Shown one piece after another: positions 5,843 to 37,217 of a DNA stretch of 64,000 nucleotides (position 1 is its first letter; each line of letters opens with the position of its first letter). Location: the NCBI GenBank assembly GCA_026075535.2, contig AP026542.1:3968001-4032000 (forward strand), given 5' to 3'. The notes under the pieces were generated by a model. The model saw nothing but the letters and a program-made list of their open reading frames with translations, had not been told where the DNA came from and did not search any database. The position numbers were made by a program, and so were the translations under genes. This stretch comes from Tricholoma matsutake (lineage: Eukaryota; Basidiomycota; Agaricomycetes; Agaricales; Tricholomataceae).

Positions 5843-6100
5843 CAGCCTATTCAGTAGAAATCTGTGATACATCCGTCCAGTGGATTTCTGCAAAACCACA
5901 ATAGATCCATCAGTAGCAGATTGGGCCCATGGCAGGAAAGACTCGTGTGGGCCCAGGGTGTGATGCATCCATGTGGGCCCAGTATACAGATTCACTGCCA
6001 GCGAAGATTATTCCCAGTGGCAATTGCTGAAAAATTCTCGGTGACAGTAACATCTGAACCACGGCGCTGGCTAGCACGGTCACCATTTTACTACATGGCA
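5843..6100 (+). repeat. Left terminal inverted repeat of the KDZ-bounded element
   Basis: It mirrors 36995-37217. Shared blocks include GTGGATTTCTGCAAAACCA-like sequence, TGTGATGCATCCATGTGGGC, ACAGATTCACTG and CAGTAACATCTGAACCA. GGGCCCA motifs recur several times here and in the other end, a pattern expected of subterminal transposase-binding sites, although that role is inference. Confidence 0.7.
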
Positions 6101-6346
6101 CTGGCGATGATTATCACCAGTGGTAATTGCCTGATCTGTGTGGGCCCAGTGAATAGAATTATAGCACTGGCAGCAACAATCGCTGCCAGTAATTGCTACA
6201 AAAATATGGTCTACCTTTCACCAGTGACGATTCTTGCCACTGGTAATTACTGAAAAGATTGTAATTGCTGAAAAATGGTGCTGGCTAGCATGGTTGGCAT
6301 TATGCATATACATTAAGCAAAACGAAATAAGTTGCTAGTAATAATT

Positions 6347-7765
6347 TTACAATGTCCTTGGTAAAGAATTCATCATCGTCCTGCACTTCTGCTGCATTAA
6401 TTGGGCCATATGGCACATTGCCTCATCAAGGTTGGCGAGCTGCCGGTGAAGGGCATGGTTTACTGCAATGTTGGACTTCACTGTCTTGATGGCCTCATGG
6501 TAGCTGTGTTCAATGGCATCAGAATAAGTTGAAATTTCCTACAATCGTTATTCAGCAGCTCCCGGCCAAAGTTCAGGACTTACTTGGGGGGCCTGCTGGG
6601 ATGTTGCCAGTGTCAATGGAGTACAACCTGGGAATATTGGATGAATGTGGCTGGGTAATGAAAGGTGGATGGTGCGTTGAGGAACATTTTGTGGAGAGCC
6701 AGGAGGGGAATAGACCTCATCTGAATCTCTCTGTGTCACTATTGAACTATGAAAAGATCTAGGCGAGGACAATGTTGGGCTGACATGATCCAGCACAGGT
6801 TCAATATAGGCCATAGAGACATCGACCTCCATGTCACTACCTTCAGTCACCTCAGTAAACCAGAAGTGTGCACTGTCCGCCTCTGGCATGTCAAGACTGG
6901 CAGGGATATAAAGAGTATCCACCATTTGTAATTGTGATGGCAGTGTTGCCAAATGATTAGGACTGCCAGGAATATAAAAAGTGTCTGGGTCAATAGTATG
7001 GGTATGTACTGGCATTGGGGCTGCAAAATCAACTCCAGAACAATCCATGGCTGGCGAGTCAGGAATATGAAACATGTTCAAGTCATGCTGTGCCAGGGAT
7101 GATGTCAAATGAGCAGTGGTGCTCGCCACCAGCAAGTCAGGACTACCAGGAATATAAAATGCATTGGCAGCTGGCGAGTAAGGAATATGAAACATGTCTA
7201 GGTCATGGTGTGCCGGCGATGATGTCAAATGAACAGTGGTGCTTGCCACCAGTGAGTCAGGACTACCAGGAATATAAAATGCATCAGTGGCCAGCAAGTC
7301 AGGAATATGAAAGATATCTAGGTCATGGTGTGCTGGCAATGATGTCAAATAAACAGTGCTTGCTGGGGGCGAGTCAGGACTACCAGGAATACAAAATGTG
7401 TCCAAACCAAAAGATTGGATATTTTTGGTGGGTGGGGTTGCCAAATGGATAATATCTGCAGCTGCTTCAGGAATATCAAAAGCATATGGGGAATGTATTG
7501 ATGCCAGCGGTAGTGGAGAATGAAGAGTACCATCCACCGCCGGTGAATCAGGACTTTTGGGAATATGAAAAGTGGCCAGGTCCAGATTATCTATATTTGC
7601 TGGTGGGGTTGAGATATCAACATTATCCACCACTAGTGAATCAGGACTACCAGGAATATAAAAGGCATTGAGGTCTAGAGTTTGCATATTTGTTGGTGGC
7701 AAATTTGGCAAGTGAACTGATGAGCTGTCTGAATATTCCATGAAGATGAGAAAATTGATCAACAA
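6347..7765 (-). CDS. Gene A: repetitive Pro/Ser-rich protein, intact, unrecognised
   Basis: The gene has two exons: 7765-6584 and 6538-6347. The 45-nt intron (6539-6583) has a GTAAGT donor and a TAG acceptor in phase 0; reading straight through instead would end at a TAA just before the acceptor. The product is about 457 residues. The first exon is built from about ten imperfect copies of a unit with the core (D)AFYIPGSPDS or FHIPDSPA, separated by short Ala/Thr/His-rich linkers. The second exon adds 63 residues that look helical (SDAIEHSYHEAIKTVKSN, then HRQLANLDEAMCHMAQLMQQ). No signal peptide or membrane segment is seen; an alternative start is MEYSDSSS, eight codons in. Unlike its neighbours it has no in-frame stop. 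It lies in the KDZ-bounded element, divergent from gene B. No function is assigned. Confidence 0.6.
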
Positions 7766-7861
7766 ATGCAGTCACGTGAATTTTGAATACAGAAGTTGAA
7801 ACTAACATTGCATTTACTGATGCTATCAACTGCATCCACCCTATGTACAAACGGTTTTACC
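7766..7861. promoter_or_regulatory. Divergent intergenic region between genes A and B
   Basis: Only 96 bp separate the assigned starts of gene A (minus) and gene B (plus), so any core promoter would be shared. No clear TATA box is visible. Function is inferred from position only. Confidence 0.3.
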
Positions 7862-9642
7862 ATGTCTTCTCAGTACACCAAATCCATGGAGCGCACCCTC
7901 AATACATTTTTGGATGGTACTCGGATGACCGCGGATGAGAAATCCATGTTGGAAAAGTTGGTGCGTGATTTTTCTTATGTCCTATGAATCTTTCTCAGAA
8001 GGCTTTGAAGTTGGATTATAGGAAAAAGGTGTTGGCCAAGGAAGTGGCGATGACGCCATTCCTCAAACACATGTTCAAAGTCCTTCATGAGTGGAATAAG
8101 TCTGGCCCAGTGCCTTGGGAATCCATTGACCATAGCATATATATTTGTCCAACTTTGCCCATCGCTGCGCCAAGCAGCACTCTCCCAGCCATGCACATTA
8201 CACTCCAATCTCCCACCATGGCTACACCACCCATCACCATTTCCACATACATTCCCACAACCATGCAAACTATGATGCTGGAAGCTCAGACCAACCAAGC
8301 AGAAGCAGCTGCAAGAGGCCAGAGCAAGGCCAAGGGCAAGGAAAAGGAGGTCATAGAACACCTGGCTCCACCTCAGTTGAAATGCTGAAAGGTGTTGCCA
8401 CAGCTGGTGCCGCCTCACCACCTTGAAATGGAGGACAGCAATGTCACAAAAGAGAAACCCTTCATCCATGCCCCCATGGCAATCATGATGGCCACTCCCT
8501 CTCTACCTGAAGACAATATATGGAGGTCCATTGCGGAACAGCCCACTCCTCTGTGCGACACCTGCAGTTCGAGGGGCCTGCCAATCTGCCGAACAATGGG
8601 TGTCCCGATTGCTTGCGTGACATGCCACAAGGGCAAGACAAAATGCTCATATATGGCATCACGTACAGCACAGTGGGATGAGTTGATAGTGGCAGGGGAG
8701 CTCAAGGGGAGCAAAAAGGTAATTGGGAAGAAAAAGGTGAAGGCAGAGGAAAGTGAACAATGGAGAATGGCACCAAAGAGAAAATGCTGGGCAGAAGACA
8801 CCACCGGTGAGCAGTCAGAAGAGTATGTTCCCATCATGCCAGCCCCAGTCGCCTCGACTTCACACACCTCCCACCGCATACCAATCCCTGAGCCTGTCGC
8901 GTCAACAAGCCTCATGATGCTGCAATCCCTCGACACCATGCTTCCTGCACCACTGCCACCAGGTCATGTCACCCATCCCAGTCGCGTGCCCACTGTCAGT
9001 GGTTTACAATGGGAGCTTCAAGACCTCCACATCCTCATATTGGTCTTGGCACAAAATCAAGGGAAATTGGATGAGGAAAGCTTGATGTTGCGTGGATACA
9101 TGGAAGTTCTCAACATGTTGAAGGAAAAGATGATGGTGAGCATTCCGGCATTGGAGGCTGAGATGAGTGGGTTGAGAGAAAAGGTGCTGGTGAGCATTCT
9201 GGTGCTGGAGGCTGAGATGAGGGGTTTGAGGAATGGGATGGAGTTGGAGAAGATGAAGCAGGAGGTATTGATGTTGCGTGGTCAATTGGTGGCGACGAAC
9301 AAGCGGCTGGCCAAATTGGAGACCGAGGAAAGCTCTGAGGAGGACTCAGAAGATGAACATCCACTGAATGCAGATGCCAAGGTACTGTTGACGATCCATC
9401 TGCTGAAGTCATCAATGTTTGTCAATCCAGCCAATTTGCATGAATCCATTCGCTCCCCACCATCACCTGTTCCCACTATTATGACCACAGCTACATCGGC
9501 AATCCCTAACGCCACCTCTTTTAGCAATGCATATGCAACTTTGACCTCCCCAGATCCAACATCAAAAAACACTATGAAAATGTCTCCCCTCCCACCGGAT
9601 ACCACCATCTCGATTTCAAAAACATCAACAACCCCAGCATAA
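7862..9642 (+). pseudogene. Gene B: zinc-cluster and coiled-coil protein with one premature TGA
   Basis: Exon 1 (7862-7960) encodes MSSQYTKSMERTLNTFLDGT and 13 further residues. A very short intron (7961-7998, 38 nt, GTGCGT...CAG, phase 0) joins it to a frame running 7999-9642, broken only by TGA at 8386-8388 in a context (TGC TGA AAG) that suggests a lost CGA. Total length is about 580 residues. A cysteine cluster at about 8550-8645 (CDTCSSRGLPIC ... ACVTCHKGKTKC) has spacing CX2CX7CX8CX2CX6C, close to the Zn(II)2Cys6 pattern except for X7. Downstream are a Lys-rich stretch, Pro/Ser/Thr linkers, and a coiled coil at 9030-9340 with an internal duplication (ALEAEMSGLREKV / VLEAEMRGLRNGM). The tail is acidic, then Ser/Thr-rich. 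A DNA-binding role is possible but inferred. Confidence 0.6.
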
Positions 9643-10544
9643 TTCTACATTGAATGAAAAATCATGATATTGTTTAGACTAAGCCTATTTGTGTATATAT
9701 TTTGATCAATATATGCATAGTTGTTTCATTGATAGATGGAGTATGAGGTATATATTGAATTAATCAATATATACAGCAATTTTACAGCTGGTAGTGAAAA
9801 TGTTACCATGCAAAAATGGTACATTGTAGTGACTGATGCCAGTAGAGATAAAGTTGGCGCTGGTCTTTTGCATAGCTCTTAAATGAAGAATTGTATGCTA
9901 CTAGTTGCTGGTGGTCACTAGAACATAAATAATAAACACAGCAGTGGTAACATGCTGTAGGAATGTGGAAGGAGGATACAAGGATATATGCAAAAACAGT
10001 ACATTTAAGTGACCGACACCATTAGTGATAAAGTTGCCAGCAGCCATAAGCGTAACACTGTAGCTCAGCAAATGACCGGCGCCAGGTACTGTAGAACCCC
10101 ATGAGCTAAGAAAATGCATATGGGCCCATCCTAACATAATACAGGGAATTGGGCCCATATGAATGATACACTGGATGGAATGTCGTGTGGGCCCATGATA
10201 GTAAAAGAAAAACAGTATTAGCCCACATGACTATGGCATACGGGACTTGAATTACTGCTGTTATTACAAATCATATGTCACCAGTTGGGATGTGATGGTC
10301 CAATGGATGATACACTTGATGAAATGATCAATATGCAAAAACAGTACATTGTAGTGACCGGCACCGGTAGTGATAATGTCACCAGGGTAGTGACTGGCAC
10401 CGGAAAAGATAACCCCATAGCTCTTAGACTTGTATGTTAATCACCGCCAGTGGTCACTAGAACATGGATAACAAAAAGCAATGACATGCTGTAAAACTGT
10501 GGGAGGATACAAGGATATGCAAAAACAGTACATTGTAGTGACCA
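9643..10544 (+). repeat. Satellite-like block inside the KDZ-bounded element, left part
   Basis: It contains several copies of a motif close to GTAGTGACYGGCRCCGGTAG followed by TGATAAWGTCACC (near 9825, 9995, 10350 and 10535). Between the copies lie GGGCCCAT blocks at 10110-10200 and AT-rich TATATATTGAAT-like stretches. No coding potential was seen. The block resumes at 17466, on the far side of two nested elements. Confidence 0.6.
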
Positions 10545-10735
10545 TAGGGCATGGCACGGGTAACCCTCGGGTATATTTTCTTATACCCCTACCCATACCC
10601 ATGAACAGCATACCTGCACGGGTAGGGGTACGGTGTTACCGTGGGTTTTTGTGGGTTACCCATGGTTATTCATGGGTATTGATATGAATATGTATTTTAA
10701 TAATCTAATTACACTAAATTAATATATAGAAAGTG

Positions 10736-11340
10736 ACCCCCCTCTCGTGTTTGGAGTGCGAGGGAGGGGGGGTGGTGCCTGTAGTCACCGAGAACAGAAT
10801 GAGTAACCCCCCCGCTCACATTTGCAGTGAGAGAGGGGGGGGTTGCTGCCTGTAGTTGTCATTCAATCCCTGTTTCCACCCCACGAGCAGTTGGGGGTGC
10901 TATTGTGGTGGTGGTCCTCGGGTCCTCCTCCTGGTCATGGTTGTCATTCCACCCGCTATCCACCCCACAAGCAGTTGCTTGTGAGGCTGGGGTGGGTGGT
11001 GTGCCATTGTGATGTGGCAGCATTGGATTCCATGTGAGCTCCTCATTCCAAGGGAATTCCAACCTAGGAAATGAAAGAAACAAAATAGTTAGTTTATGAA
11101 AAAAGAAACAAATGAAAAAAAAACTTACTGTGGGCCCAAACAATGCAATCACATTGTTTGGGCCTGGGTGACGTGGCACTGTTGGGTGTGTGTTGTTAGC
11201 TGTTGTTGTCCATTGTTATCAGTAGTTTAGAACCTGAAAAAGAAGAAACATAATTAGTTAGTTTACAAAAAACAAGAAATGAAACACAAAAAATGTTACT
11301 ATAGGTCCAAACGACAATTCACGTCGTTTGGGCCATGTTG
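10736..11340 (-). repeat. R1 module, copy A (two tandem hairpin-intron units)
   Basis: Read on the minus strand there are two units. Unit A2 has a hairpin at 11304-11333 (AAACGAC ... GTCGTTT) followed by an intron-like segment at 11299-11234 (GTAACA...CAG, 66 nt). Unit A1 has a hairpin at 11132-11166 (GGCCCAAACAATG ... CATTGTTTGGGCC) and an intron-like segment at 11128-11064 (GTAAGT...TAG, 65 nt). Downstream come GAGCAACTGCTC-like motifs and two C-rich hairpins (10736-10775 and 10805-10845). The same order is seen in the other R1 copies. Confidence 0.65.
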
Positions 11341-11403
11341 TGGCCATTGTGGTTGCTTACTTGTCGTCCTCACTCCCCGTTTCCACCCTGCAAGCAGTTG
11401 CTC

Positions 11404-11505
11404 ACAGTGGTGGTTGGGGGTGCTATGGTGGTGGTTGGGGGTGCTATGGTGGTGGTTGGGGGTGCTATGGTGGTGGTTGGGGGTGCTATGGTGGTGGTTG
11501 GATTG
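11404..11505 (+). repeat. Minisatellite of 21-bp units, about four copies
   Basis: The unit GGTGCTATGGTGGTGGTTGG(G) repeats head to tail about four and a half times with essentially no variation. Because 21 is a multiple of three, every frame gives a 7-residue repeat; these ORFs are not taken as genes. Confidence 0.8.
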
Positions 11506-11709
11506 TCCTATAGTTTAGAATTAGATGTGTTGTGAGTAATCAACAAGGTCAGATGATCACTCACCTGACCAAAATCTGGGTACCGGCATACCCGCACATA
11601 CCCATAACACTGTGGAAAAGGGTATGGTGTTGCCTGGGTATGGCAATCCCATACCCATACCCATGACTGGAAACACATGGTGTTACCTGTACCCATGCCA
11701 TGCCCTAAG

Positions 11710-12021
11710 TGTAAGGGGACTAGGGGGACTAGGGGGGTGCCCTGTGTGTTTCTTCTATTTTTTACAGGTGGAGCACCCCTTCCGACATCTACCCCTTGGT
11801 ATGATGTCATTCGGCAGCCTTGATCTGCCTATCTCCACCTTTTCTATTTTTAGGTTATTATTTGATTTTTGTCATCTTCACATATACTGGGCATCGGCAA
11901 AGGGATCCTTAGAGTTTTCTCTTTGGATTCCCCTTTGCTAGGTGCGTCCCCAATCCCTGTAATATGTAGTATAATTTTAACTTTGGATTTCCCTTTGCTA
12001 GAGGCTGAGGTTGCCCTTATA
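11710..12021 (+). repeat. Gypsy-1 5' LTR
   Basis: 312 bp, matching 17154-17465 with scattered substitutions. It starts TG and ends TA. It contains a duplicated TTTCCCTTTGCTAG-like segment near its 3' end. Confidence 0.93.
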
Positions 12022-12064
12022 GTAGAAAACTCTCTCCTAAGGCCCGAAATCGTGAACACACTGC

Positions 12065-13290
12065 CCAAGATAGGCAGGTATGGAGTGGATGCTTCCCAAA
12101 GCTCCACAGACTCCCTACACACCGTTCCAGACAGTCCCGCCTTTACTGCACTGCCATTTTCGCCAAACGCACCCCCTAGCGACATGGACGCATCAGAGCA
12201 CCTTGACGTGCTTGAAAGCGATGTTTCTGGAATATGCACGCAAATCGATTCACTTAAATCTACAATCAAAAACTTTGTCAGGCCCCTCCAGACTAACCCT
12301 ATGACCAATATTCCCCCCATTGCGACTCCAAGTGCACCCAACAACGACGTGCTGCCAAACATGCACACTAAAGAGTGTGCCCAGATCAAACCGTCTCCCC
12401 CCGCTGAATTTAATGGTGCACGTGCGCAGGGATGTGCATTCCTTAATTCCTGTGAGTTATACATCAGTCTCCAGTTGCATCAATTCATCAATGAGGCTGC
12501 AAAGATTTATTGGGCCTTCACATACATGAAATCTGAACGTGCCTATCTCTACGTGGACTGTATTCTGTGTCAAACTAAAGAACTCGGTTCTCTACCTTTC
12601 TCCACTTGGGGTGACTTTTGAGCCGAGTTTGTATGCCACTTTTGTCCCCTCAATGAGCACCACCGAGCAGTGACATGACTCGAGTCATCCTCTTACCACC
12701 AGGCATGTTGATCCATGGACGATTATATCGATGAGTTTAAGGATTTGGTGGACATGGCAGGATATGGGAGTGGGCTACCAGTTGTGGTGAAGTTCTGACG
12801 GGGCTTCAATCGAGAAATTCAGGACCAGATTGCACAGATGTTGGAAGGGCACCCAGCGGACAATGATATCTATGCTTGGTATGAAGCTGCTTCACTCTGT
12901 GATGAGAACTGACTCACAAATGCAGTGTTTAATGCTGCATTCCGTGCTCCAACTACCACTCATGCGCCCTACACCTTCAATCGAACCCTTCCCCACCTTA
13001 ACCCCATTCCTGTTCATCAGACTCCCACACCAGCCGTCAATGTCCCAGTACCAATGGATGTTGATGCGGCCCGCAGCCGTGCACGTAGGTTGGATCTCTG
13101 CTACCGCTGTGGGGAAACTGGGCACAGGGCTGGAGTGTGTCCCCATCATCAGGATATCCGCATGCTCACCCCTGAGGGGTGAGATGAACTCCTCCAAGAC
13201 TTGTTGGTGCTTGTAGATGTCGAGGAAGTGAAGGATCAGGTTGCAGAGGAGATCAAGTCAGAAGTTGTAGAGGAGCAGGATTTTTCTATT
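12065..13290 (+). pseudogene. gag: Gypsy-1 gag relic
   Basis: A Retrotrans_gag-like capsid segment lies near 12400-12621 (PAEFNGARAQGCAFLNSCEL, then AKIYWAFTYMKSERAYLYVD). A CCHC zinc knuckle (CYRCGETGHRAGVC) lies at about 13100-13140. The frame is broken by TGA at 12619-12621 and 13180-13182, with further TGA codons between. Contexts (TTT TGA GCC GAG; GGG TGA GAT) are consistent with arginine CGA codons changed to TGA. No translation start is assigned. Confidence 0.85.
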
Positions 13291-13298
13291 CGCAGCAA

Positions 13299-16200
13299 GT
13301 GAATTGTACGCCCTCACTGCCTGTCCATAACCACTTTGAAGTCTTGTCAGTTGAATCCTCAGAGAATGAATCCATTTCTGTGACTGTTCCCCTCTCTGAC
13401 CTTTCAAAGTTGGCTGAAGACGTACCTGCTCTTCCCATCTCTCCCTCTGCTCCACACCCCAAAATTAAATCATGGGAGCGTAAACTACCATGCAAATATA
13501 TTGTTGTGTCCACTCCCTCTACACATTCCTTGAACCTAGCAATTGAACTGCAGACGACCGACACTGGACAGATACTCGGTGTCTCTGCGCTTCTGGACTC
13601 TGGTGCGACCAGTCTCTCCATCGATGCCCATCTCACACAACAACATTGCCTAAATACTCGCTCACTCTCGCATCTGATACCTGTGTATAATGTGGATGGG
13701 TCCCCAAACAAAGCTGGTGCCATCCAAGAGGTTGTAGACCTGGTCCTCTGTTACAAAGATCATAGTGAGCGTGCCCTTTTTGCTGTCACTCAATTAGGAA
13801 AGCAAAAGGTAGTTTTGGGCTATCTGTGGCTTTGAGACCATAACCCAGAGGTCAACTGGCATACCGGGGAGGTTACCATGAGCCAATGTCCATCCCGCTG
13901 TCGTACTTGTTTCACAGAAGCCAGGCAAGAACATCATGAACAGAAGGCCATGATACGATGTACTCAGAAGTGTCATGCCGGACCCCTTCCTATACCTGAA
14001 GTGGAGTTGGAAGGGTTTCCTGATCTGATGCGGGACTCGGATGATGATGATGAGGAGCCAGAGGAGGTGGAGGAAGGCGATCGGATCTTCTACACTGTGA
14101 TTCATCCATTGCACAAGGTGTGTGCTACATCAAACATATCCCAATGCCTCGCTGAGGCCTTCCACAAAAACAATGCTGCTAAATCCTCTACTAATTCCTT
14201 GCTCCCTCATCTCCATGAGTTTGGAGACGTGTTCTCCAAGGAATTGTTCGACTCTCTCCCTGCATGCAAGCCATGGGATCACACGATCAAACTCATCCCC
14301 GGTGCAACCCCTTCATCCTGCAAGGTCTATCCTCTCTCTCCTGAAGAACAGCGACAGCTTGACCAGTTCATCGACGAGCACCTGGCCTCTGGACGTATTC
14401 GACCATGGAAGTCACCCATGGCCTCTCCCTTTTTCTTTGTCCAGAAGAAGGATGGCTCACTTTGACTGGTTCAAGACTACAGAAGGCTCAACAACATCAT
14501 GGTCAAAAATTGCTACCCATTACCTCTCATCTCCGAACTCGTGAACCAGCTCCGTGGAGCCCCATACTTTACCAAGCTCAACGTCCATTGGGGCTACAAT
14601 AATGTGAGGATAAAGGATAGAGATGAGTGGAAGGCAGCCTTTCATACCAACTGTGGTCTTTTTGAACCGCTTGTCATGTTCTTTGGCCTTACTAATAGTC
14701 CTGCCACCTTTCAGACCATGATGAATGACATTTTCCACAACCTCATCCTTGAAGGCATTGTTTGCATCTATCTCAAAGACATCCTCATCTTCACTCGCAT
14801 GGTTGAAGAGCACCGTCACATCATGTGCCTTGTCCTAGAATGGCTTCGATGGTACAAACTCTACCTTCATCAGGACAAGTGCAAGTTTGAGAAGACCAAG
14901 ATTGAGTACCTCAGCCTGATTATCTCGGAGGGTCAGGTGGAGATGGATCCTATCAAGGTGAACGGGGTCATGGCTTGGCCAACGCCCATGAACAAGAAAG
15001 AGGTGCAGTCTTTCCTGGGCTTCATCAATTTCTATCAGTGTTTTATCAAGGATTTCTCACATCATGCACAACCACTGTTTGACTTGACAGGAAAGGAGGC
15101 ATGGAGGTGGGATAATGCACAACAGGAGGCATTCAAAAAGCTTAAGGAGATGGTCACTTCTGCTGCCATTCTTACCTTTGCTGATGATTCGCATCCTTTT
15201 CGTGTAGAAGCCGACAGTTCTGACTTTGCGACAGGCACCGTGTTGTCTCAGCAGTCTCTGGAGGACCAGAAGTGGCATCCTGTTGCATTCTACTCCAAAA
15301 GCCTTAGTGCTGTAGAGTGAAATTACGAGATCCATGACAAGGAGATGTTGGCAATAATGCGTGCACTTGAGGAGTGGTGACACTTCCTCGAGGGTGCCCA
15401 ATACAGGGTGGAAATTTGGACAGATCACAAGAATCTCGAGTACTTTATGATGGCCAAGAAATTGAACTGTCGTCAAGCTCGTTGGTCCCTGTATCTATCC
15501 AGATTCGACTTCTCCTTGCACCACCGTCTGGGTCACAGCATGGGGAAGACCGATGCCCTCTCCCGATGTGCAGACCATGGGGATGGCAGTGATGACAACC
15601 AAAACATTGTGTTGTTGCAGCCAGACCTGTTCACCATTCGGGCACTGGAAGGCATTACACCCCAGGGCGAGGAGTGGGACATCCTACATGACATTCATCA
15701 TGCAAACTGTAGTGGTTTACATGAGGATGTTGTTGCCCGAGCTGTTAAAGAACTGAGGAAGGGATCCACCCTTTCCTTGCATGTGGCAGAGTGGGCTGAA
15801 AAAGAGGACTTGTTGTATTTCAGGGATCACATCTACATCCCCAATGACCCAGACCTTCACCGGCGCATCACATCCCAACACCATGACTCACAGATTGCTG
15901 GTCATCCTGGATGCTGGAAGACCTTGGAGCTCACCTCACAGAATTATTGGTGGCCACAAATGTCATGGCTCATTGGTCAGTATTGTCACTTGTGACCTTT
16001 GCTTACACACCAAGATTCCTCATCGCAAACCCATTGGCGAGCTACACCCTCTTCCTGTTCCAGAGAGTTGTTGGGATGTTGTCAGCATCGACTTTGTGGT
16101 GGAGTTGCCAGAGTCGAATGGGTTTGATGTGGTGATGTGCACAGTTGATTCAGTGGGAAAACATGCTCACTTCATTCCCACTCACACCACTGTCAGTGCC

Positions 16201-27362: not shown

Positions 27363-27858
27363 GAAGAACACAACTTCCCATATCAGTGCACCTTCTCTTA
27401 CTTGTGCATACATCATTGTTTCACTGCGCCACATCCAATTACTCATCCTTTCGGCATGAGCTGGAAGTACTTGTATATATGTAATCTACCTTTTCTTTCA
27501 TAAGCTGATGCCAGGCCTCGCCTTACATTGCGACTGCCAGTGATCAAGAGGCAGTGCTCATCATTAGGACAGCTGCAACCAGACAACCGATTGGATCTGG
27601 TTTAGTTATGATTTACATCACTCTATTTGGACGACTATTTTAGTTACAAGCTGAATTCAGTGTTATCCCCGAGATCAGGCACTGTTGGAAGGGTTATTGA
27701 TCCGAAGTGTCAAATTAGGTGCCTGACAATTGACAAACAATTGATGAACAATTGATGAATGATTGATGAACCATCACGTGACCTGTAAACATTTGGAGAG
27801 GTCTCAAAGAAAAAATCTTGAATTTGTCAAAGAAGTGATTCATCACAGATTTTACAAT

Positions 27859-28949
27859 TATGTCCGAACCCTAATCCTGGCCCTAATCCTGTTCCCACAC
27901 CAGCACTAGAGGCAAAAATTGATGCACTTACAGTGCAAATGTCCCAATTAGTGTCAGTGTTGGCAGCATCACAGCCCAGACAAGTGGAAGTACAGCCAGA
28001 GATGACAGGAGAAAGAGATGATGAGATGGAGGACATGGTGGAGTGGATGTCACAGGAGGATGAGACAGCAGAGAAATCCGGAAATGGAAAGGCATGCTTA
28101 CCTAAGTACGTGCCCCCGCAAATCTTTGATGGTACCATGGAGAATACAAAATCCTTCATCAGCTCTATAGTATTGTACATCCATGGGAGGAAGCCAGAGT
28201 TTTGTACAGCCAAGTCTAGGATTATGTTTGCTCTCTCATACATTCAGGGGGGGAAAGCACAGTTCTGGAGAAACAAGGCTATTAATCAAATTGCTGCGGG
28301 AAATAAACCATTTGCAACCTTCAAGGAATTTCTGGAGAGATTGGAGGCACAGGTTGGAGACCCTAATCCAAAGGCAACAGCCAATGCTAAATTAAAGACC
28401 ATGTGCCAAGGTTCCCTAACAGCGGTTGAATTTATTTTGCAGTTCAAAGCAGAAGCTTTGCAAACGGATATGGGAGAAGCCGCGTTGGTAGAGTTTTTGA
28501 AAGCAGGATTAAATCCCTCTTTATTCAAGTCTATCTACCAACTACCTTCTATGCCAGAAAAGTTGGACGAGTGGTATAATTGGGCAATGTGCCTTGACCG
28601 GCAATATTGGCAGGAACAGGTGGAGTCAAAGTTGATGTATGGAAGTAGTTAATTTGGAAAGTCATCAGGAGGAAAGTCCAAGAAAGGAAAGGCGCCTCAG
28701 GCACAAGCTCCGAGGGCACAGCCACTGGCCATGGCAGTGACACCTATAGTTACAGAGTCAGCAGCACCAGCAGAGGCAATGGAGGTTGATCAAGCAGGAA
28801 GATGAGCCCCACTTAAATGTTTTAACTGTGGGCAGTTAGGACACATTTCTAGGAATTGTAGGCAGAAAAGAAAGATTAGGGAAGCTACAATCGAGGAAGT
28901 GAAGCCGGAGGAAGGCAAGCAGAAGAATTTTGTGGAAGAGTCCCAGTGA
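27859..28949 (+). pseudogene. gag: Gypsy-2 gag relic
   Basis: Gag-like capsid sequence (LPKYVPPQIFDGTMENTKSF; ALSYIQGGKAQFW) runs to about 28650, and a CCHC knuckle (CFNCGQLGHISRNC) lies near 28820-28860. The start ATG at about 27859 is followed by a roughly 10-nt deletion relative to Gypsy-3, which breaks the frame at once. In-frame stops occur at 28650-28652 (TAA) and in GR-stop-APLKCF near 28803 (TGA). The gag frame ends at TGA 28947-28949 and overlaps pol, which is in the -1 frame. Confidence 0.88.
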
Positions 28950-31900
28950 AGGTTTCCCCATTGGTGACCCAGAATTGTTACAATGTATTAGTATCTGAGG
29001 AAACCCAGAGCAAATCAGAAAAGGAAATCGAGGAGGAGTACAACCGTTCTGAATCACGTGACCAAAAGGAGTACAACTGTTGTCAATCATGTGACAAAGA
29101 AAATTGTCATACGTCATTTCCAAAAACCCCTAAATTCTTTATTCACTCTGCGCGAATCGAACCCGAAATCACCTTGACTGTGGGACTGAAGACAGTGGAC
29201 ATGCATGCAGCAATTGATGTGGAAGTGTTGCTTGATAGTGGTGCTACAGGATTATTCATTAATTGGTCCTTAATTACCAGAAATGGTATTAGCACACACA
29301 AGCTGGTGCAACCTATAATGGTGTACAATATTGACAGAACAGTCAATTGTGGAGGAACTATCAAGGAGGAGGTGACTATGGTACTAAGGTATCAGGAGCA
29401 TCAGGAGCAAGCTGTATTTGAAGTGTGCAATCTTGGGAAAATCAATCTAATAATAGGATGTCCATGGTTACAGAAGCATAAGACCGAAATTGATCAGAAA
29501 AATGGGAAAGTACAAATGACTCATTGTCCTAAGGAATGTAATGTGTATGGGAGGAAGATGAAGAAGGAAAAAAGGAAAAAGAAAGAGAAAGAATGTCCAA
29601 GAAAGTATTCTGTTATGATGGAGGAAGTGGAGGATGAGGAAATGCCAAATGAGGAAGTTCCGGTCATGATTGAGAAAGAAGAGCAGAAGCAAACCTTTAG
29701 AGCAATTCGTGGAGGACAGTCATGGGACAAGAATATTGTGAAGGTGGAGAAGCCAGTGGAGGAATGGGTGCCAAAGGTGTATCATGAATATCTGTCAGTG
29801 TTCCAGAAGAAGGAGTCTGAGCGAATGCCAGTGCGGAAGCCATGGGATCATGTGATCGAGATGAATCCAGGGTTTGTGCTGAAGAAGTCGAAGGTATATC
29901 CATTATCTCCGATGGGACAAGAAGAAGTGGATGCATTCCTGAAGGAGCAATTGCGCAAAGGATACATACGACCTTCAAAATCACTGCAGACATCACCAAT
30001 ATTCTTCGTACCAAAGAAAGACCAAAGGAAGAGGATGTGTACAGATTATAGGTATCTGAATGAGTGGACAGTGAAGAATGTGTACCCCCTGCTGTTGATC
30101 TCAGAAATAATTGACAAGGTGGGAAAAGCCAAGGTCTTTACAAAATTGGATTTACGATGGGGATGCAACAATGTACAAATAAAGAAAGGAGATGAGTGGA
30201 AGGCCGCATTTGCCATGTGTCGAGGATCCTTCAAGCTGCTTGTCATGTTTTTTGGGATGACTAATAGTCCCCCCACCTTTCAAAATATGATGAACAACAT
30301 TTTCAAGGATGTAATAGACAAAGGGGTGGTAATAATATTTATTGACGACATTCTGATATCCACAGCGGATGAAGAAAATCATGAGGCAATAGTGCAGGAG
30401 GTGTTACGGAGGTTGGCGGAGAATGATCTATTTTTGAAACCAGAGAAGTGTGTGTTTGGGGCAAGCGAGATTGAGTTCCTAGGATTATTGATTGGCCCTG
30501 ATGGGATCAAAATGGATCTGATCAAGGTACAGGCAATCACAGATTGGCCTGTGCCCACCTGTGTCAAGGAGGTTCAAGCCTTCTTGGGACTCACAAATTA
30601 TTATCATCGCTTTGTGCACAATTTTTTAAAAATTGCTGCACCCTTACATAACCTTACGTGAAAGGGAGTAGTATGGAGGTGGGGAGAGCAGCAGCAGACA
30701 GCATTTGAGGAGTTGAAGAGGAAGTTTGTGGAGGGACCAATATTAGCCCCAGTGGATTTCACATGCCCTTTGCGAGTGGAATCCGATGCATCTGATTTTG
30801 CTACTGGAGCAGTATTATCAATGCTGTGCAAAGATGACAAATTGCATCCTTGTGCATATTTGTCCCGAGGATTGAATGATGTGGAGAGGAATTATGATGT
30901 CCATGACAAAGAGATGTTGGGGATAATACAAGCATTGGAGGCATGGAGCCATTATTTGGAGGGATGTATGCATCAGATTGAGATCTGGATGGATCATCAA
31001 AATCTGCAATACTTCATGTCTGCTAAAAAGCTTAATCGCTGGCAAGCATGTTGGGCACTATTCCTATTGCATTTCAATTTTCACTTGGTCCACAAAGGGG
31101 GAAGCTTAATGAGGAAAGCAGATGCATTATCCAGATGTATTGATCATAAAAGGGGGGTGGAGGAGGACAATAAAAATGTTACCTTACTCAAACCCAAATA
31201 CTTTCGCATTTGCGCTATGTGTCAAGGGCATCTATTAATAGATAGCTTGGAAACGGAAATGTTGTCTAAAATTAGACAATGTTTGGAAATGGATGATGAA
31301 GTAGTGGAAGCCATGAAAGCTCTGAAGGGATAGAAGAAAGGTAATATCAAAGGAGATGAATGGGCTGAGGAACAAGGGTTGGTGTTGTTTTGAGGAAAAG
31401 TGTATGTACCAAAGGATCACAATTTGCGAAGGGAGATTGTCCAGTTACATCATAATACGCCGACTGCTGGACACCCAGGAAGATGGAAGACGTTGGAATT
31501 AGCAATGAGAAATTATTGGTGGCCCAGAATTTCAAAGTATGTGTTGGGGTATGTGGATGGATGTGATATGTGCATGAGGGAGAAGAAAGTTCCAGAAAAA
31601 CCTGCAGGAAAATTAATGCCAAACCCTATACCTAAAGTGCTGTGGTGAGATATATCTATGGATTTTATTACCAGATTACCTGAGGCTCAAGGGTACTATG
31701 CAATATTCGTAGTATGCGACCACTTTACAAAGGAGGTCCATATTATTCCTACTACTACAGAAACCTCATCATTGGGCTTGGCGTGCCTCTATCTAAATCA
31801 GGTATGGCGGTTACATGGGTTACCCAATACAGTTATCCCCAATCGCGGACCACAATTTGCTTCTGCATTTATGCAAGAACTGAACAACATATTGGGAATT

Positions 31901-32803
31901 CAAACTAAACTATCTACAGCATATCATCTGCAGACTGATGGGCAGACAGAGAGAATGAACCAGGAGTTGGAGCAGTACCTACATATGTTTGTCAACTACT
32001 GACAAACCAACTGGCCCAAATGGCTGGCAATTGCCAAATTTTCCCACAATAACAAATTCCATTCAGCTACTTGTATGTCACCCTTTTTTGCAAATTATGG
32101 ATATCATCCTCACATGGGAGTAGAACCCAGAAGGGAAGTCAAAGTACAGTCAGTAGAAGACTTTGTATCTAAGATGCAAAAGGTACAAGAGGAAGCAGAG
32201 GCAGCATTGAAGAAAGCATGTGATGACATGATGCGACACATGGATCGTACTCGAGCACGCGCTCCAGAGTACAAAGTTGGTGACTTGGTATGGCTAAGTA
32301 CCAAGGACCTGAATATTCCACGACCTTCAAGGAAACTTACGGAAAAACAAGTTGGCCCATATGCAATCTCTAAAGTAATCTCGCCTAATGTGGTAGTGCT
32401 AAAATTACCCTGATCATTCAAGATTGATCCCGAGATTGACGTATCCCACCTATGCCCTTACTGCCCACCCACTATTCCTGGCCAACAAACTACTCCGCAA
32501 CCTCCAATAATAGTAGAAGGTGCTCCAGAATACATAGTTGAAGAAATTCTAGACTCACATCTTCGACGGAACAAATTGGAGTTCTTAATAAAGTGGAAAA
32601 ACTATACTGACGAAAATAATTCATGGGAACCCGAAGAGAATTGTAAGCAAGCACGTAAGGTGATCGCCCAATTCTTTAAACGTAATCCAAATGCTCCACA
32701 TCGCATTGCGAGAATGGTGTATGAGGGGATGAGATTCTGGCCTTACCAAAATTTCACAGAGGGGACAGACACAATATTTTCTTGCCTGGAAGTCGAGGCA
32801 TAA
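28946..32803 (+). pseudogene. pol: Gypsy-2 pol relic, one continuous frame with six stops
   Basis: A single frame runs 3.86 kb with no frameshift. Stops are TGA at 30659, 31391, 31646, 32000 and 32411 and TAG at 31331. Protease has LLDSGATGLFI. RT has FFVPKKDQRKRMCTDYRYLN, FGMTNSPPTFQ and the active box FIDD. RNase H and integrase follow; the integrase motif reads IPNRGPQF where Gypsy-3 has ISDHGPQF, so a catalytic aspartate is Asn here. A chromodomain ends the protein (FLIKWKNYTDENNSWEPEEN, near 32580-32640). Confidence 0.92.
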
Positions 32804-32814
32804 AAGGGGGGTAA

Positions 32815-33216
32815 TGTTAGGAAACCACCCCATTACCTAATAAAATTTCATTTTTATTTTATTATGTCGAATTATGCTACATGATGCCAAATGATGCTAC
32901 ACTTTGATAGCATGAGAATTTTATTTCGCATGCATCAAAATGTACACGCATGTACGAGTGCGTCAGTAACAACAATGTACAATATATGTAACATAGTATA
33001 TAAACCCTAAATATACACCTAGGGGACCCCAGTTGTGTTCTCTTAGGTATTCCACCTACGTTTTCAGTCTGAAAGGCCTTTCTCAACCAACTCATCTATT
33101 AATAACCCCTTGCATCAAAACCATCAGTTCCCCCATCATGAGCGCAGATCCCGCCCCCTTCTTGTAGAGAGAACCCACATGGTCTTAGCTAGCAGATAGT
33201 GGGTGTCGCCCTAACA
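32815..33216 (+). repeat. Gypsy-2 3' LTR
   Basis: 402 bp, the partner of 26961-27362, directly before the GGCAT duplication. Confidence 0.93.
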
Positions 33217-33221
33217 GGCAT

Positions 33222-33860
33222 CGAGGGTGAGGCATCATGTGGTTTATTGTCCACCTCTGCTTGCATTGTTGTTTGTTGCATTGTTGTTCACCTTCCCCCC
33301 TGTTTGTGTTGTCGTGTGTCATCCCCCCGCGTTTGCATTTGCATTGTCCTCCCCATCCGTTTGCATTTGCCTTGTCATTACCATCCATTTGTGTTTGCAT
33401 TGTTGTCCCCATCTGTTGGCATTGGCGTTGTTGTCCCCATCCATTGGTGTTGACATTCATTGGCCCTCCTGTCCATGTCATTGTTTGTCCTCATCCCAGC
33501 CCCATTTGCATTGTCCTTTGGTTGTTGTCCCCACCCAATTGCATTGTCAGTCAGCACCACCATTTCCCCCTACAAGCAGTGGCTCACAGGCGGGGTGGTG
33601 GCGCTATGTGATGTGGCATTGGGTGTGGCATTGAGCATGGTGCAGTGGTGTTGTTGTCAGTTGTTGGCCTGAATGGGACCCGTTGCTGCCCTGTGATCAG
33701 AGGCTCACAGCGGCATCGTAGGGCTCCAGCAGGATACATTGATGAGAGGGAACAAGTGAGATTCTAAAAAGAAAACAAATTGGTTAGTACAGAAAAAGAA
33801 ATCTACAATACTACAGACATACCTCTGGGCCCATGTGTCCTTTCAGTTGCAGTGCATCAT
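33222..33860 (-). repeat. R1 module, copy C (continued from 26860-26960)
   Basis: On the minus strand: GGGCCCAGAG, then an intron-like segment at 33822-33764 (GTATGT...TAG, 59 nt), then the ACAAGCAGTGGCTCACAGGC motif (rc), then a minisatellite of about 30-bp units based on TTTGCATTGTTGTCCCCATC at 33260-33545. The C-rich hairpin end of the module (CCCCACCTCGCATGAGAGTG) lies at 26936-26960, on the other side of Gypsy-2. The large hairpin stem of the other copies has decayed here. Confidence 0.6.
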
Positions 33861-34479
33861 TTTTGAGGTAGGCACAGTGGGTGTCATGGGTGGGTGGATA
33901 GAAGAGTGGGGGAAGTGGCATTGTGGGTCATTGGTGGTCATGAGAACCATTTCGCAAAGTGGTGTCACTTTGTTTTTTGGGCAGCACACATGTCCAAAGG
34001 GTCCATGCACAGCCACAGGCTATATAAACTCTCACCAAATGAGTCCTTTTTCCCCGGGCATGTCCCATTTATTTTATAATGTTAGATATAGTAAATATTA
34101 ATAGTATCTATGTTAGTATACATTCTTTTATTGACTGTAATTTTGAATACATTGGCAATATTATATGTACTGTGAGAAGACCAGTTGCAACCGATTGCAA
34201 CCGGTTTTCAAACAGTTTTGAGATATTTTAAAATTGAGGCAACCAGCAACCCAACCGCCCTCGAAAGAGGGTAACCGCAACCAACGGTCCGGTTACGATT
34301 GGTTGGGTTGGGTTGGGTTGCGGTTTTTTTTTCCACTATGCCTTCTTATGCCTTGGAGTTGACTGAGGACTTTGCCAAACTGGTACAAGGTGGTCCCTCA
34401 TTCCCCATGATGTCTGGGAGTGAACGACAGTCATCTGGGAGATTCTTCCAATGATGGTGCGAGTGTGTCCTCTAGGCAT

Positions 34480-35660
34480 GATGGTTTGTAGACTAATGTA
34501 GAATTATTGAACAAGCATCTCCAGGATTATATAGGCACTGTAGGCAGTGAGGAAACATGGCAACATGGCAATGTAAATGACAATGGTACCATGTAGAGGT
34601 TACTATGGTACTGTTCTATACTACAGCATACTAACATGTTACCTAGGTCATACTCACAAAGCTACCATCGATGTTTCCAATGGAAAATTACACCGGTGGT
34701 GTTTGTGATAACCTTTGGTCAATAGTTTCTTACTACACCGTTGTTACTGTTCTGTACTACCGCAAATCACATATGACATGCTGTAGTTGTGTGAGCCTAT
34801 ATCTTGCTATTTGACCATCGTGGGCCCACCCGGTCACTTCGTGTTGAATGTATTATACATATGGGCCCATGCCCTTTAATTATGTTCAAATGGGCCCATA
34901 CAGATTTCTGGATTGTTGCACTTTTTGACCAATGTGGTTTCTGGGACTGTGGGCACATCGCCGGCAGCACCTGTGATGGTTTCTATAGACCTTGTGCTCA
35001 TTAGCCTGTAATTGTTTCTTGCAATGCTTCAATGTGTCGGAAAACACATGTTTATATAGGGTTGTCTGATCCATCGGCGCCTATGCCATTGCCTGTGAGG
35101 TTCTGTGATTTTTCAGCTCCAGGAAACTTTTCGCTTAGCTCTGACTTGTACGCTTATGGCAGCAGGTGACTTTATCACTACCAGCGTCTATCACCACAAT
35201 GTACTGTTTTTGATATATCCTTATCCTCCCACATTCCTACAGCATACAGCATGTTGCCATTGCTGTGTTTGTTATCCATGTTCTAGTGCACACCGGCTGC
35301 AATTAGCATACAAGTCTTTTAAGAGCTATGTGAATGACCGTCACCGACTTTATCTTTTCCGGTGCTGAGAGATACAGTTAGGAAATAGCTGACGGCCACA
35401 CAAGCGACAGTTGCTGTCCAGCCAGTGTCAGGATTAATCTATGTCTAATCTCATTGGACATTACTACTGTCTTTGACTAATGATTGTTCTCTTGTGTTAC
35501 TTGTCTGTGTATCTTACTGACATCAGCCCACATGCTTCCAGCTGGGGCAACCACTAGCACTTTCCCCAACTTATGCCACTGGTGGAAATTTATATGAATC
35601 AGGGAGTAAAAACTTAAATAGATGACTTGTTAAGTGTCAACGTGCTCCCTAATTTGATTC
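34480..35660. repeat. Upstream region of KDZ-B with an inverted satellite block
   Basis: No gene is seen. From about 34800 to 35370 the block is an inverted copy of the satellite at 9.8-10.5 and 17.5-17.9 kb: GGGCCCA blocks near 34822-34905, then TTTATCACTACCAGCG, CACCACAATGTACTGTTTTT, CTACAGCATACAGCATG and GTTATCCATGTTCTAGTG. Together the two sets lie inside both ends of the KDZ-bounded element in opposite orientation. Confidence 0.55.
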
Positions 35661-35671
35661 CGCACATCCTC

Positions 35672-36660
35672 TCAGTAAGCCAACAATTTCCTGTCCTTCT
35701 GAAGTTGGGCATCATTTTCTCGAACTGTCTCGGTCATCCTTTTCCATGTTGAATGCAGGTCATCGAAGATCTTCATCATTAATTGTATTTTGGCCATGTC
35801 ACCAGCAGCATATGGGACCAGCCATAGGTCTTGCCAGGTGAACGGGATCTGATGAAACTTAAGATAAATTAAAGGACAACAACATGTTACTCGCCTGTGG
35901 CCAATGAACCACCAGGAAGTTGTGTGGAGCAAATGGGTATGAGTTGTAGTTCTCCAGATTGTTCTGTTTACTCCACCAAGAGTTGATATAGCTATCGATG
36001 ATACGGGTGGGGTCATCAGCATCAACCTTTGTATTGCCAGAATGTATTCTAGTTCCAGAAAATCTTTGCCCTCAGGATCATTGCATTCCAAGCACCCCAA
36101 AGTCCCATCCTGCACCATCTTTATGGTTTCCATGATGAGCAGGTGAGTGTATGGAGCACTGCCACCCATAGAGGCATAAATTCCAATGGCCATCAAGAAT
36201 TCCTTCTAAGTTGGTATTGGTGATGAGATAATTGGCAATCACAATATGTTCACTTACAGTCTCGTAAAATATGCCAGACACCCACCCCAACCATGACTCA
36301 TCATAGTCTTCATCGTTCTCTACCACATGGATCCATGCGGTGATTGCCATGTGGAGACGTGATGTTCCATACAACAGCACTTCCTCCCCATGTGCTAGAT
36401 CATTCCATGCTGGTCAGTAGTCCCGTAGTACTCTCTCGAATGCTGAGATCACAAGCCACCTGTTGAGCAGTGATGGCCTGCTCATGGAACTCAGTAGGCT
36501 TGACTGTAGGGTGAGGGTTCTCTAGGAAATCGGTGTTCCTCTGATGCTCGACCTCTATTTGATTCAATGCAGTAGCAAATTTGCCAGCAGTAACAGGGTC
36601 AGGTTGATATGGCTGGCAAGGCATGGATTTGAGGTTTGTATAGTGGGATAGCATAACTTC
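35672..36660 (-). pseudogene. Gene D: unrecognised multi-exon cargo gene
   Basis: Coding starts near 36654 (MLSHYTNLKSMPCQPYQPDP). The frame changes near 36435, with no credible intron, and continues as AFERVLRDY, a TGA, then PAWNDLAHGEEVLLYGTSRL. A 52-nt intron (GTAAGT...TAG, about 36262-36211, phase 0) joins FYET to KEFLMAIGIYASMGG. A 42-nt intron (GTAACA...CAG, about 35893-35852, phase 0) joins FIGHRR to IPFTWQDLWLVPYAAGDMAK. It ends with a charged helical tail (TETVRENDAQLQKDRKLLAY) at 35672. The two clean phase-0 introns argue that it was a real gene. No domain is recognised. It sits between KDZ-B and the right terminal repeat. Confidence 0.5.
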
Positions 36661-36994
36661 AATGCAGTTGTAGATAACGTTTGGACAATTAAGTAATCAA
36701 TGGACAAAATTGTCATTGGCACCGGGAACAAGCACCAATGATATGTCTGTATGGGCCAATGTCTATAGGAAAACCAGTGGTGGGCCAATACAATTATTCC
36801 CTATCAAATGGGATCATCGCATGGGCCCATGTATATGTGGTAAGCAGTTCAAACTCTTAACTATACCCTCTGTCAAGTCGGTCAAATTGTGCGCTCATAC
36901 CTCTGGATTCTGGCCCCTACATTGGGACATTCATTTACATCTAACCATAATCTATAGCAGGACATCACATCAATAATTGGTGTCTAAACAAATT

Positions 36995-37217
36995 GGCTAG
37001 GGCCCATGTATATGTGGTAACATGTAGTAAAATGGTGACTGTGCTAGCCGGCGCCATGATTCAGATGTTACTGCTGCCGAGAATTTTTCAGTGAATCTGT
37101 ATACTGGGCCCACATGGATGCATCACACCCTGGGCCCAATCCACTACTGATGGATCTATCATGGTTTTGCAGAAATCCACTGAACAGATATACCATTGTT
37201 TTTTACTGAACAGTGTG
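36995..37217 (-). repeat. Right terminal inverted repeat of the KDZ-bounded element
   Basis: It is the inverted partner of 5843-6100, with the outer 20 bases CACACTGTTCAGTAAAAAAC when reverse complemented, followed by the GGCATGG duplication at 37218-37224. The region 36661-36994 between gene D and this repeat has GGGCCCA motifs and no gene. Confidence 0.7.

What the first reader, a model, noticed from the sequence alone, without database searches (positions are those of the whole stretch)
5843..37217. A 31-kb KDZ-bounded element carrying four cargo genes
Inverted ends of about 200-250 bp, a GGCATGG duplication and perfect continuity of the host element (P1) across it define one mobile unit. 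Inside are a CxC2-type KDZ transposase relic and genes A, B, C and D, none of which I recognise. KDZ elements are known for association with TET/JBP genes; I see no such gene, so this cargo set looks different. Gene A is uninterrupted while everything else is broken, which could mean selection, or only chance.
Basis: partly seen in the sequence, partly recalled or inferred. Interest (0 to 1): 0.9.

Follow-up and report, generated by a model that had tools for sequence, protein, structure and literature searches.

The report
Multi-gene KDZ transposon family in matsutake
The 31-kb stretch is one old, insertion-riddled copy of a high-copy jumping-gene family of the matsutake mushroom that travels with the same extra genes beside its transposase, and its ends carry a short palindrome at a fixed distance that other, otherwise dissimilar families of the same transposon class in this genome also carry.

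Summary
Window 5843-37217 is one mobile unit: ~250-bp inverted ends, 7-bp target duplication GGCATGG, host palindrome continuous across it. The assembly matches T. matsutake TMA_r1.1. The 31 kb is a ~15-kb element swollen by nested insertions. The genome holds 90 left and 90 right ends; 56 pair correctly (median 16.9 kb); 16 of 20 tested pairs have perfect 7-bp duplications (0 of 380 mismatched controls). Of the 56, 52 contain gene B, 50 gene C, 54 the KDZ transposase, 47 all three: standard equipment of the family, not cargo captured by this copy. None of the genome's 61 Tet_JBP matches lies in the 56; many lie beside other KDZ transposases. "Gene A uninterrupted" is compatible with chance (P=0.20); evidence for selection is mixed. 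New here: the palindrome TGGGCCCA lies 80, 106 and/or 132 bp from each end, and a TGGGCCCA ~80 bp from an ACTGAA-N5-TG terminus occurs 241 times genome-wide against 0 for the reversed pattern, also at TET-carrying KDZ families without other similarity there. Best reading: a Kyakuja-like multi-gene KDZ transposon with palindromic subterminal recognition sites.

The parts
5836..5842 (.). left copy of the 7-bp target-site duplication GGCATGG
   Evidence: 16 of 20 other pairs tested have perfect 7-bp duplications
5843..6097 (+). left terminal inverted repeat, starts CAGCCTATTCAGT; TGGGCCCA palindromes at 5922, 5948, 5974 (80, 106, 132 bp from the end) and 6141
   Evidence: 90 genome copies of the first 30 bp with up to 3 mismatches
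6548..7741 (-). gene A: about 397 codons from its first ATG, with 40-aa tandem repeats (FYIPGSPDS / LDxFHIPDSP); no known domain; not disrupted in this copy
   Evidence: A-like ORFs in 19 of 20 fetched loci, one ORF spanning nearly all of A in at least 7 of 20
7862..9642 (+). gene B: exon 7862-7960, likely intron 7961-7998, exon 7999-9642, with a premature stop at 8386-8388; cysteine-rich motif and coiled-coil-like stretch
   Evidence: 24 of the 53 matches that span at least 405 of the 417 query residues have no stop, the window's own included; 100 of 148 candidates scored; no homologue found; exon borders and motifs read by eye
9951..10543 (.). internal repeat block with TGGGCCCA at 10121, 10150, 10188
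10549..11709 (.). stretch with inverted ends (AGGGCATGG...CCATGCCCT) that is not found at this place in the other copies; probably a further nested insert (borders approximate)
11710..17465 (+). nested LTR retrotransposon (LTRs about 95% identical, flanking CTAAG duplication); not part of the element
17466..17720 (.). internal repeat block with TGGGCCCA at 17584, 17613, 17652, 17682
18067..20720 (-). gene C, several exons (borders read by eye); disrupted here; carries a 148-bp insert 19850-19997
   Evidence: 6 homologues in public metagenome-derived proteins, 38-65% identity
20928..26630 (-). KDZ transposase gene: CxC2 (25704-26456), KDZ pieces (about 24405-25404), long C-terminal part (20941-22086); broken by the insert 22151-24310 and frame disruptions
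   Evidence: PF18803 E=8e-23, PF18758 E=2e-12; 76 family matches of the KDZ exon at >=87% identity over >=134 aa, 67 of 76 without a stop (150 of 550 candidates scored; counted by eye)
22151..24310 (.). nested insertion with a 7-bp direct flank TCTTCAT; not seen at this place in the copies compared
26631..34335 (.). nested insertion (flank duplication near TGCCTTCTTA) that itself holds an LTR retrotransposon at 26944-33217; not seen at this place in the copies compared
34821..34898 (.). internal TGGGCCCA cluster (34821, 34862, 34891)
35672..36661 (-). gene D, at least two exons; no known domain
   Evidence: 4 metagenome homologues 61-78% identity over 54-69% of the query
37021..37217 (-). right terminal inverted repeat, ends TTTTTTACTGAACAGTGTG; TGGGCCCA at 37131 and 37105 (80 and 106 bp from the end)
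   Evidence: 90 genome copies of the last 29 bp with up to 3 mismatches
37218..37224 (.). right copy of the 7-bp target-site duplication GGCATGG

Best explanation
A decayed copy of a high-copy, multi-gene DNA transposon of the KDZ superfamily (closest in target duplication and termini to Kyakuja) in Tricholoma matsutake. SHOWN: the unit between the ends moved as a whole many times (paired ends, 7-bp duplications, recurring gene content), its DNA carries a strong CpG-decay signature, and palindromes TGGGCCCA sit at fixed distances from both ends and in internal clusters. INFERRED: the CxC2-KDZ transposase recognises the terminal CA-N5-TTCAGT together with the subterminal TGGGCCCA sites, cuts the element out and inserts it with a 7-bp stagger; genes A-D are helper genes of the element (DNA binding, assembly of the transposition complex, or counteracting host silencing), doing without a TET/JBP dioxygenase. 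The 31-kb size is due to later insertions.
For: Ends and duplication; 90+90 ends, 56 correct pairs, against 3 opposite-strand and 2 wrong-side combinations; 16 of 20 pairs with perfect 7-bp duplication, 0 of 380 mismatched combinations; gene content B 52, C 50, KDZ 54 of 56, 47 all three, while the spans make up 0.7% of the genome; KDZ and CxC2 domains; C and D homologues in other public sequences; TGGGCCCA 15 and 24 times in two complete copies against 0.5 expected, at 80, 106 and/or 132 bp from the ends; 241 terminus+palindrome places against 0 reversed; CpG C>T 22-28% against 1.3-1.8% outside CpG; in six gene pieces the window copy has 3 new stops where 14.8 are expected.
Against: 4 of 20 tested pairs lack a perfect duplication. 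Constraint on the genes is not established: codon positions 1/2/3 outside CpG segregate 229/204/238 (p=0.25); over all copies 63 new stops against 82 expected is only a mild deficit (nominal p=0.017, copies not independent); naive median dN/dS of 0.33-0.80 is not trusted because of CpG bias. Gene A was followed only in 20 fetched loci, gene D only in 3 copies plus the window. Gene B has no homologue in the protein database. No function is known for any accessory protein; structure models of C and D are useless (mean pLDDT 37 and 39). Two Kyakuja families of Laccaria are described as having no TIRs, unlike these.
Confidence: 0.85

Rival explanations
1. A composite or one-off capture: two KDZ ends happened to enclose unrelated host genes, which would be cargo of this copy.
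For: Four genes without known domain between the ends.
Against: B, C and KDZ on the expected strands in 45 of 56 paired copies; largely collinear DNA in most of the 20 fetched loci.
Confidence: 0.02
2. A member of another KDZ branch (Zisupton or Dileera) rather than Kyakuja.
For: Long TIRs here; two Kyakuja families of Laccaria are described without TIRs. No named reference sequences were available for a tree.
Against: Zisupton and Dileera make 8-bp duplications; here 16 of 20 pairs are perfect at 7 bp and none at 8; termini CA..TG as in Kyakuja.
Confidence: 0.2
3. TGGGCCCA is a host transcription-factor or chromatin site enriched in these elements, not a transposition site.
For: Internal clusters lie between genes; recalled, not from a call: plant TGGGCC/T site II elements are promoter elements.
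Against: Fixed 80-82 bp distance from the very terminus, in both ends of this family and in other families; the ~9.8-kb gene-poor relative L074, whose ORFs look like repeats (not scanned against Pfam), keeps it.
Confidence: 0.25
4. Genes A-D are non-functional passenger ORFs that merely hitchhike; only the transposase matters.
For: No codon-position signature of constraint among these copies; gene A openness compatible with chance; A, B and C show about as many new stops as expected over all copies (7 of 8.4, 18 of 21.7, 20 of 24.3 and 10 of 10.3 expected).
Against: Recurrence in most copies; 24 of 53 long B matches without a stop; C and D homologues of 38-78% identity, open over 148-482 residues, in other public sequences; in the window copy 3 new stops against 14.8 expected over six pieces.
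Confidence: 0.15

Closest known systems
Kyakuja DNA transposons (KDZ superfamily), e.g. Kyakuja-1_LB and -2_LB of Laccaria bicolor as described by Kojima 2025, PMC12730594 (section 3.2 read)
   Same: KDZ transposase, 7-bp target duplication, 5'-CA..TG-3' termini, Agaricomycete host
   Different: No TET/JBP gene; about 250-bp inverted ends where those two families are described as having none; extra genes A-D; the passages seen do not mention subterminal palindromes, and its supplements were not readable here
TET-carrying KDZ families of the same genome (L072, L073 and places)
   Same: KDZ transposase (36-44% identity to ours over the matched stretch for hits near Tet_JBP), terminus ACTGAA-N5-TG, TGGGCCCA 82 bp from the right end
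   Different: Tet_JBP nearby; no DNA similarity at the ends beyond the motifs (14 of 62 positions between the two motifs; the best local end alignment is the palindrome itself)
Zisupton and Dileera (KDZ)
   Same: KDZ transposase class
   Different: 8-bp target duplications against 7 bp here
Multi-gene DNA transposons with a helper DNA-binding protein (Harbinger/Nuwa with Myb/SANT protein, mentioned)
   Same: Transposase plus separate proteins in one element
   Different: No Myb/SANT match in the ORFs scanned

Membership tests
KDZ superfamily | KDZ transposase domain PF18758 | tested here: met
   window 24405-24911 E=2e-12; copy L029:337-861 E=5.8e-21
KDZ superfamily | CxC cysteine cluster associated with KDZ transposases | tested here: met
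   PF18803 CxC2 E=8.4e-23
Kyakuja | 7-bp target-site duplication | tested here: met
   16 of 20 pairs perfect, 0 of 380 controls, plus the window copy and two complete copies read by eye
Kyakuja | 5'-CA..TG-3' termini | tested here: met
Kyakuja | no terminal inverted repeats (as described for two Laccaria families) | tested here: not met
   ~250-bp inverted ends; a description of two families, so I file the element under KDZ and call it Kyakuja-like only
Kyakuja | transposase falls in the Kyakuja clade of a tree with named references | not tested
   no named reference sequences at hand
Zisupton / Dileera | 8-bp target-site duplication | tested here: not met
   0 of 20 pairs perfect at 8 bp
TET+ KDZ transposons | Tet_JBP gene inside the element | tested here: not met
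   0 of 61 genome matches of PF12851 inside the 56 paired spans; PF20515 rang nowhere, controls included, and says nothing
Cargo-capturing elements | variable cargo between copies | tested here: not met
   47 of 56 pairs hold B, C and KDZ

The most novel reading that the evidence does not exclude
KDZ transposons of this genome share a terminal code, CA-N5-TTCAGT at the tip and a TGGGCCCA palindrome 80-82 bp inside, kept by families whose end DNA is otherwise no more alike than chance and whose transposases are only about 40% identical. The code is the docking site of the KDZ machinery; families may therefore mobilise each other, and TET-less multi-gene families such as this one live beside TET-carrying ones, either using helper proteins A-D in place of TET or profiting from TET made in trans.
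Probability: 0.35. Interest if true: 0.7.

Novelty: new variant of a known kind. Interest (0 to 1): 0.55.

Why it matters
KDZ transposons are known mainly for their association with TET/JBP dioxygenases, which may counter DNA methylation. Here a KDZ family reached about 90 detectable copies of each end without TET, with a recurring set of other genes, in a genome whose other KDZ transposases often sit next to TET genes. That is a natural contrast for asking what TET does for a transposon. The palindrome at a fixed distance from the tip, shared by several end types, is a concrete and directly testable candidate for a recognition site of KDZ transposases.

Tried and rejected
Tried without result: Pfam for genes A-D (only matches below the curated cut-offs); homologues of B (none among the 7994 candidates scored); solved structures for B, C, D (none for B, one chance-like match each for C and D, E 0.96 and 0.41); structure models of C and D (mean pLDDT 37 and 39, so no fold search was made). 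Literature: TGGGCCCA with transpos-: one unrelated paper in the listing; Kyakuja, subterminal, Agaricomycetes, accessory genes: of the 10 listed of 72 papers only PMC12730594 holds Kyakuja; KDZ terms, listings; Tricholoma, listing. Papers: PMC12730594 abstract, sections 11, 18 and 26 and find passages; PMC7473861, PMC9674265, PMC10211490 passages only; PMC6980582 find without a hit. The original KDZ paper of Iyer and colleagues was not seen.

Rejected: selection on gene A as the reason for its open frame (P=0.20 open by chance); dN/dS as proof of selection, because CpG decay biases it and the codon-position test outside CpG is flat (of nine pieces only the N-terminal one of C has p=0.021, uncorrected). 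Rejected: the 10-bp AGTAACAAGG at the right flank as an excision scar. KDZ loci L001-L008 (0 of 8) show no TGGGCCCA, a result against generality, but they hold only about 1.5 kb of flank and need not reach the ends; the KDZ group at 47-49% identity to ours could not be tested for the palindrome.

Rows dropped: unpaired ends (34 of 90 left, 34 of 90 right). The 20 pairs were chosen by me from the 56. Of the 150 rows, 91 were used as this family (36-49%) as other families; six rows at 55-78% were used in neither. In one search loci with 60% or less of a piece were left out. In one search only the first 100 of 241 places are listed, the first 100 rows (50 places) of 430; the split 65 family / 35 other was made by eye on the printed letters.
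Full report
WHAT WAS CHECKED. Positions 5843-~6097 and 37217-~37021 align in opposite orientation over about 250 bp with length differences. The termini read CAGCC...GTGTG, flanked by GGCATGG on both sides (5836-5842 and 37218-37224). The flanks, joined, restore a palindromic host element; a 10-bp stretch that one arm lacks is present in two other copies of that element in the window, so the continuity is real.

HOST. The genome that holds the window has 161,040,721 bases in 13 contigs. The total and the lengths of contigs 11, 12 and 13 equal those printed for Tricholoma matsutake TMA_r1.1 (passages of PMC10211490), so the host is matsutake.

FAMILY. A 30-base pattern for the left end and a 29-base pattern for the right end, up to 3 mismatches, each occur 90 times; the same patterns read backwards occur 0 times. 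56 left-right pairs lie within 60 kb in the correct order and orientation, against 3 opposite-strand and 2 wrong-side combinations; the median span is 16.9 kb, and 33 of 56 measure 14.7-18.8 kb, 4 are shorter and 19 longer. Of 20 pairs that I chose and whose flanks I fetched, 16 have a perfect 7-bp duplication, one matches at 6, one at 5, one at 3 and one at 2 of 7; no pair is perfect at 8 or 9 bp, and 0 of 380 mismatched combinations are perfect at 7. Two complete copies (E14 on C2, 14.8 kb; E28 on C4, 16.6 kb) have CAACTGA and AGTGTGT (by eye). The window copy measures 15.75 kb without the inserts 11706-17465, 22151-24310 and 26631-34335, and about 14.4 kb if 19850-19997 and the stretch 10549-11709, which the other copies lack at this place, are inserts too.

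GENE CONTENT. In most of the 20 left-end loci (10 kb each) the interior is collinear with the window interior; L020 keeps only the end, L025 and L027 are interrupted within gene A, and L022 has an internal inversion. A-like ORFs occur in 19 of 20, and one ORF spans nearly all of A in at least 7 of 20. Genome-wide, inside the 56 paired spans, gene B occurs in 52, gene C in 50, the family's KDZ exon in 54, all three in 47, and all three on the expected strands in 45; the spans are 0.7% of the genome (from, whose lists are capped at 100 of 148, 112 of 182 and 150 of 550 scored candidates). Gene D was seen in the 3 copies read to or near the right end and in the window. These are therefore standard genes of the family, not cargo of one copy. 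The transposase gene runs on the minus strand from about 26630 to 20928: CxC2 (PF18803, E=8e-23), the KDZ domain in pieces (PF18758, E=2e-12 in the window and 6e-21 in copy E14), and a long C-terminal part without a Pfam match. 67 of 76 family KDZ exons (>=134 aa, >=87% identity) have no stop (counted by eye); so have 24 of 53 gene B matches that span at least 405 of 417 residues.

WHAT THE EXTRA GENES ARE. A: tandem-repeat protein. B: two exons, cysteine-rich motif and coiled-coil-like stretch (by eye); no homologue found. C: multi-exon; six homologues in public metagenome-derived proteins, 38-65% identical over 79-96% of the query. D: four homologues at 61-78% over 54-69% of the query. No known domain passes its cut-off, no solved structure is convincingly related, and models of C and D have no confidence.

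TET. PF12851 (Tet_JBP) has 61 matches in this genome, all 86 candidates scored. None lies inside the 56 spans. Of 53 KDZ hits of other families (36-49% identity to ours), 34 lie within 20 kb of a Tet_JBP match: 34 of 40 among those at 36-45%, 0 of 13 among those at 47-49%. PF20515 rang nowhere, controls included, and carries no weight.

DECAY AND SELECTION. In aligned pieces of A, B and C, cytosines in CpG have become T in 22-28% of cells (against the majority base), outside CpG in 1.3-1.8%; CpG observed/expected is 0.30 in the window copy, 0.41-0.44 in E14 and E28, and 0.46 in the rest of the window. This is the mark of methylation decay or a RIP-like process. Signs of constraint are mixed. 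Against: outside CpG the three codon positions segregate alike (229/204/238, p=0.25); gene A in the window stays open with probability 0.20 by chance. For: over the six pieces whose reference came from another copy, the window copy has 3 new stops where 14.8 are expected (nominal p=0.0002); over all copies and seven pieces it is 63 against 82.1 (nominal p=0.017, copies not independent). A fair reading is that frames were kept open while the lineage was active and decayed freely after insertion. The naive median dN/dS of 0.33-0.80 is not used.

SUBTERMINAL PALINDROMES. TGGGCCCA occurs 15 and 24 times in E14 and E28 against about 0.5 expected; in the window it occurs 20 times, all inside 5843-37217: 17 in the element's own DNA, 2 in nested inserts and 1 (11131) in the probable insert. 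In E14 and E28 it lies 80 and 132 bp from the left end and 80, 106 and 132 bp from the right; the window copy has 80, 106 and 132 on the left and 80 and 106 on the right. All 20 fetched left-end loci keep sites at 80 or 106, and at 132. Within one family this symmetry could be inherited with the inverted repeat. The telling point is that other families share it. A TET-carrying KDZ family ends ...ACTGAAGGGGCTG with TGGGCCCA 82 bp inside, and its gene-poor relative L074 has it 82 bp from its right end and, if its left end is where a 6-of-7 duplication suggests (by eye), also 82 bp from its left end. The pattern TGGGCCCA-N60-74-ACTGAA-N5-TG occurs 241 times in the genome and its reversed form 0 times. 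Of the 100 listed, 65 look like this family and 35 do not (by eye); 23 of the 35 lie within 8 kb of a Tet_JBP match and 0 of the 65 do. Between the two motifs, ours and the TET family agree at 14 of 62 positions, which is chance; three further end types agree with ours at 26-33 of 62 and so are probably related ends. Arrays of TGGGCCCA with 33-43 bp between occur 215 times, reversed 0; of the 22 clusters listed (chromosomes 1 and 2 only), 11 lie within 7.2 kb of Tet_JBP, 4 within 5.4 kb of this family's ends or transposase (one of these, C2:10340901, has units of the TET-family type), and 7 by neither, of which two are the two ends of L074. Result against generality: none of the eight other KDZ loci L001-L008 shows the palindrome in 3.6-4.0 kb, but these stretches need not reach the ends.

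MECHANISM. Shown: movement as a unit, target duplication, recurring gene content, fixed cis sites. Inferred: the CxC2-KDZ transposase and perhaps B bind the tip and the palindromes, bring the ends together, excise and insert with a 7-bp stagger; A-D assist. The internal palindrome clusters could serve regulation by the same protein. Recall, not from a call: KDZ transposases are held to have an RNase H fold.

VERDICT. A confirmed observation, an interpretation that is half right, a family not met in the listings and passages I saw, and one new and testable regularity.

Noticed in passing
window 408-761 (-): Another KDZ transposase stretch, E=6e-39, in a 323-codon frame without stops (C5:3968408-3968761), not part of this element.
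   Followed up: no
window 26944-33217 and 54601-61109: Two copies of one LTR retrotransposon in opposite orientation, about 93-94% identical over the longest pieces; the first is nested in this element.
   Followed up: no
window 47708-50684: A long palindrome with 1,166-bp arms 99% identical around 645 bp, a relative of the palindromic element into which the KDZ element is inserted.
   Followed up: partly
window 22151-24310: A 2.2-kb insert with 7-bp direct flanks TCTTCAT and short inverted ends (TTTACACT/AGTGTAAA); unidentified.
   Followed up: no
window 10549-11709: A ~1.2-kb stretch with inverted ends beside the nested LTR retrotransposon, absent at this place from the other copies; unidentified.
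   Followed up: partly
L074 (C2:13075001-13085000): A ~9.8-kb gene-poor element full of repeats with an end like that of the TET-carrying KDZ family; C2:13639304-13648709 looks like a second copy.
   Followed up: partly
whole genome (G000): 61 Tet_JBP matches; at least two arrangements relative to KDZ, about 5.6 kb away on the same strand and about 2.5 kb away on the opposite strand.
   Followed up: partly
L014 around 7991-8835: An ~840-bp segment present in several copies (L009, L010, L014, L022, L028 among them) but absent from the window copy and from L013: probably two subfamilies.
   Followed up: partly
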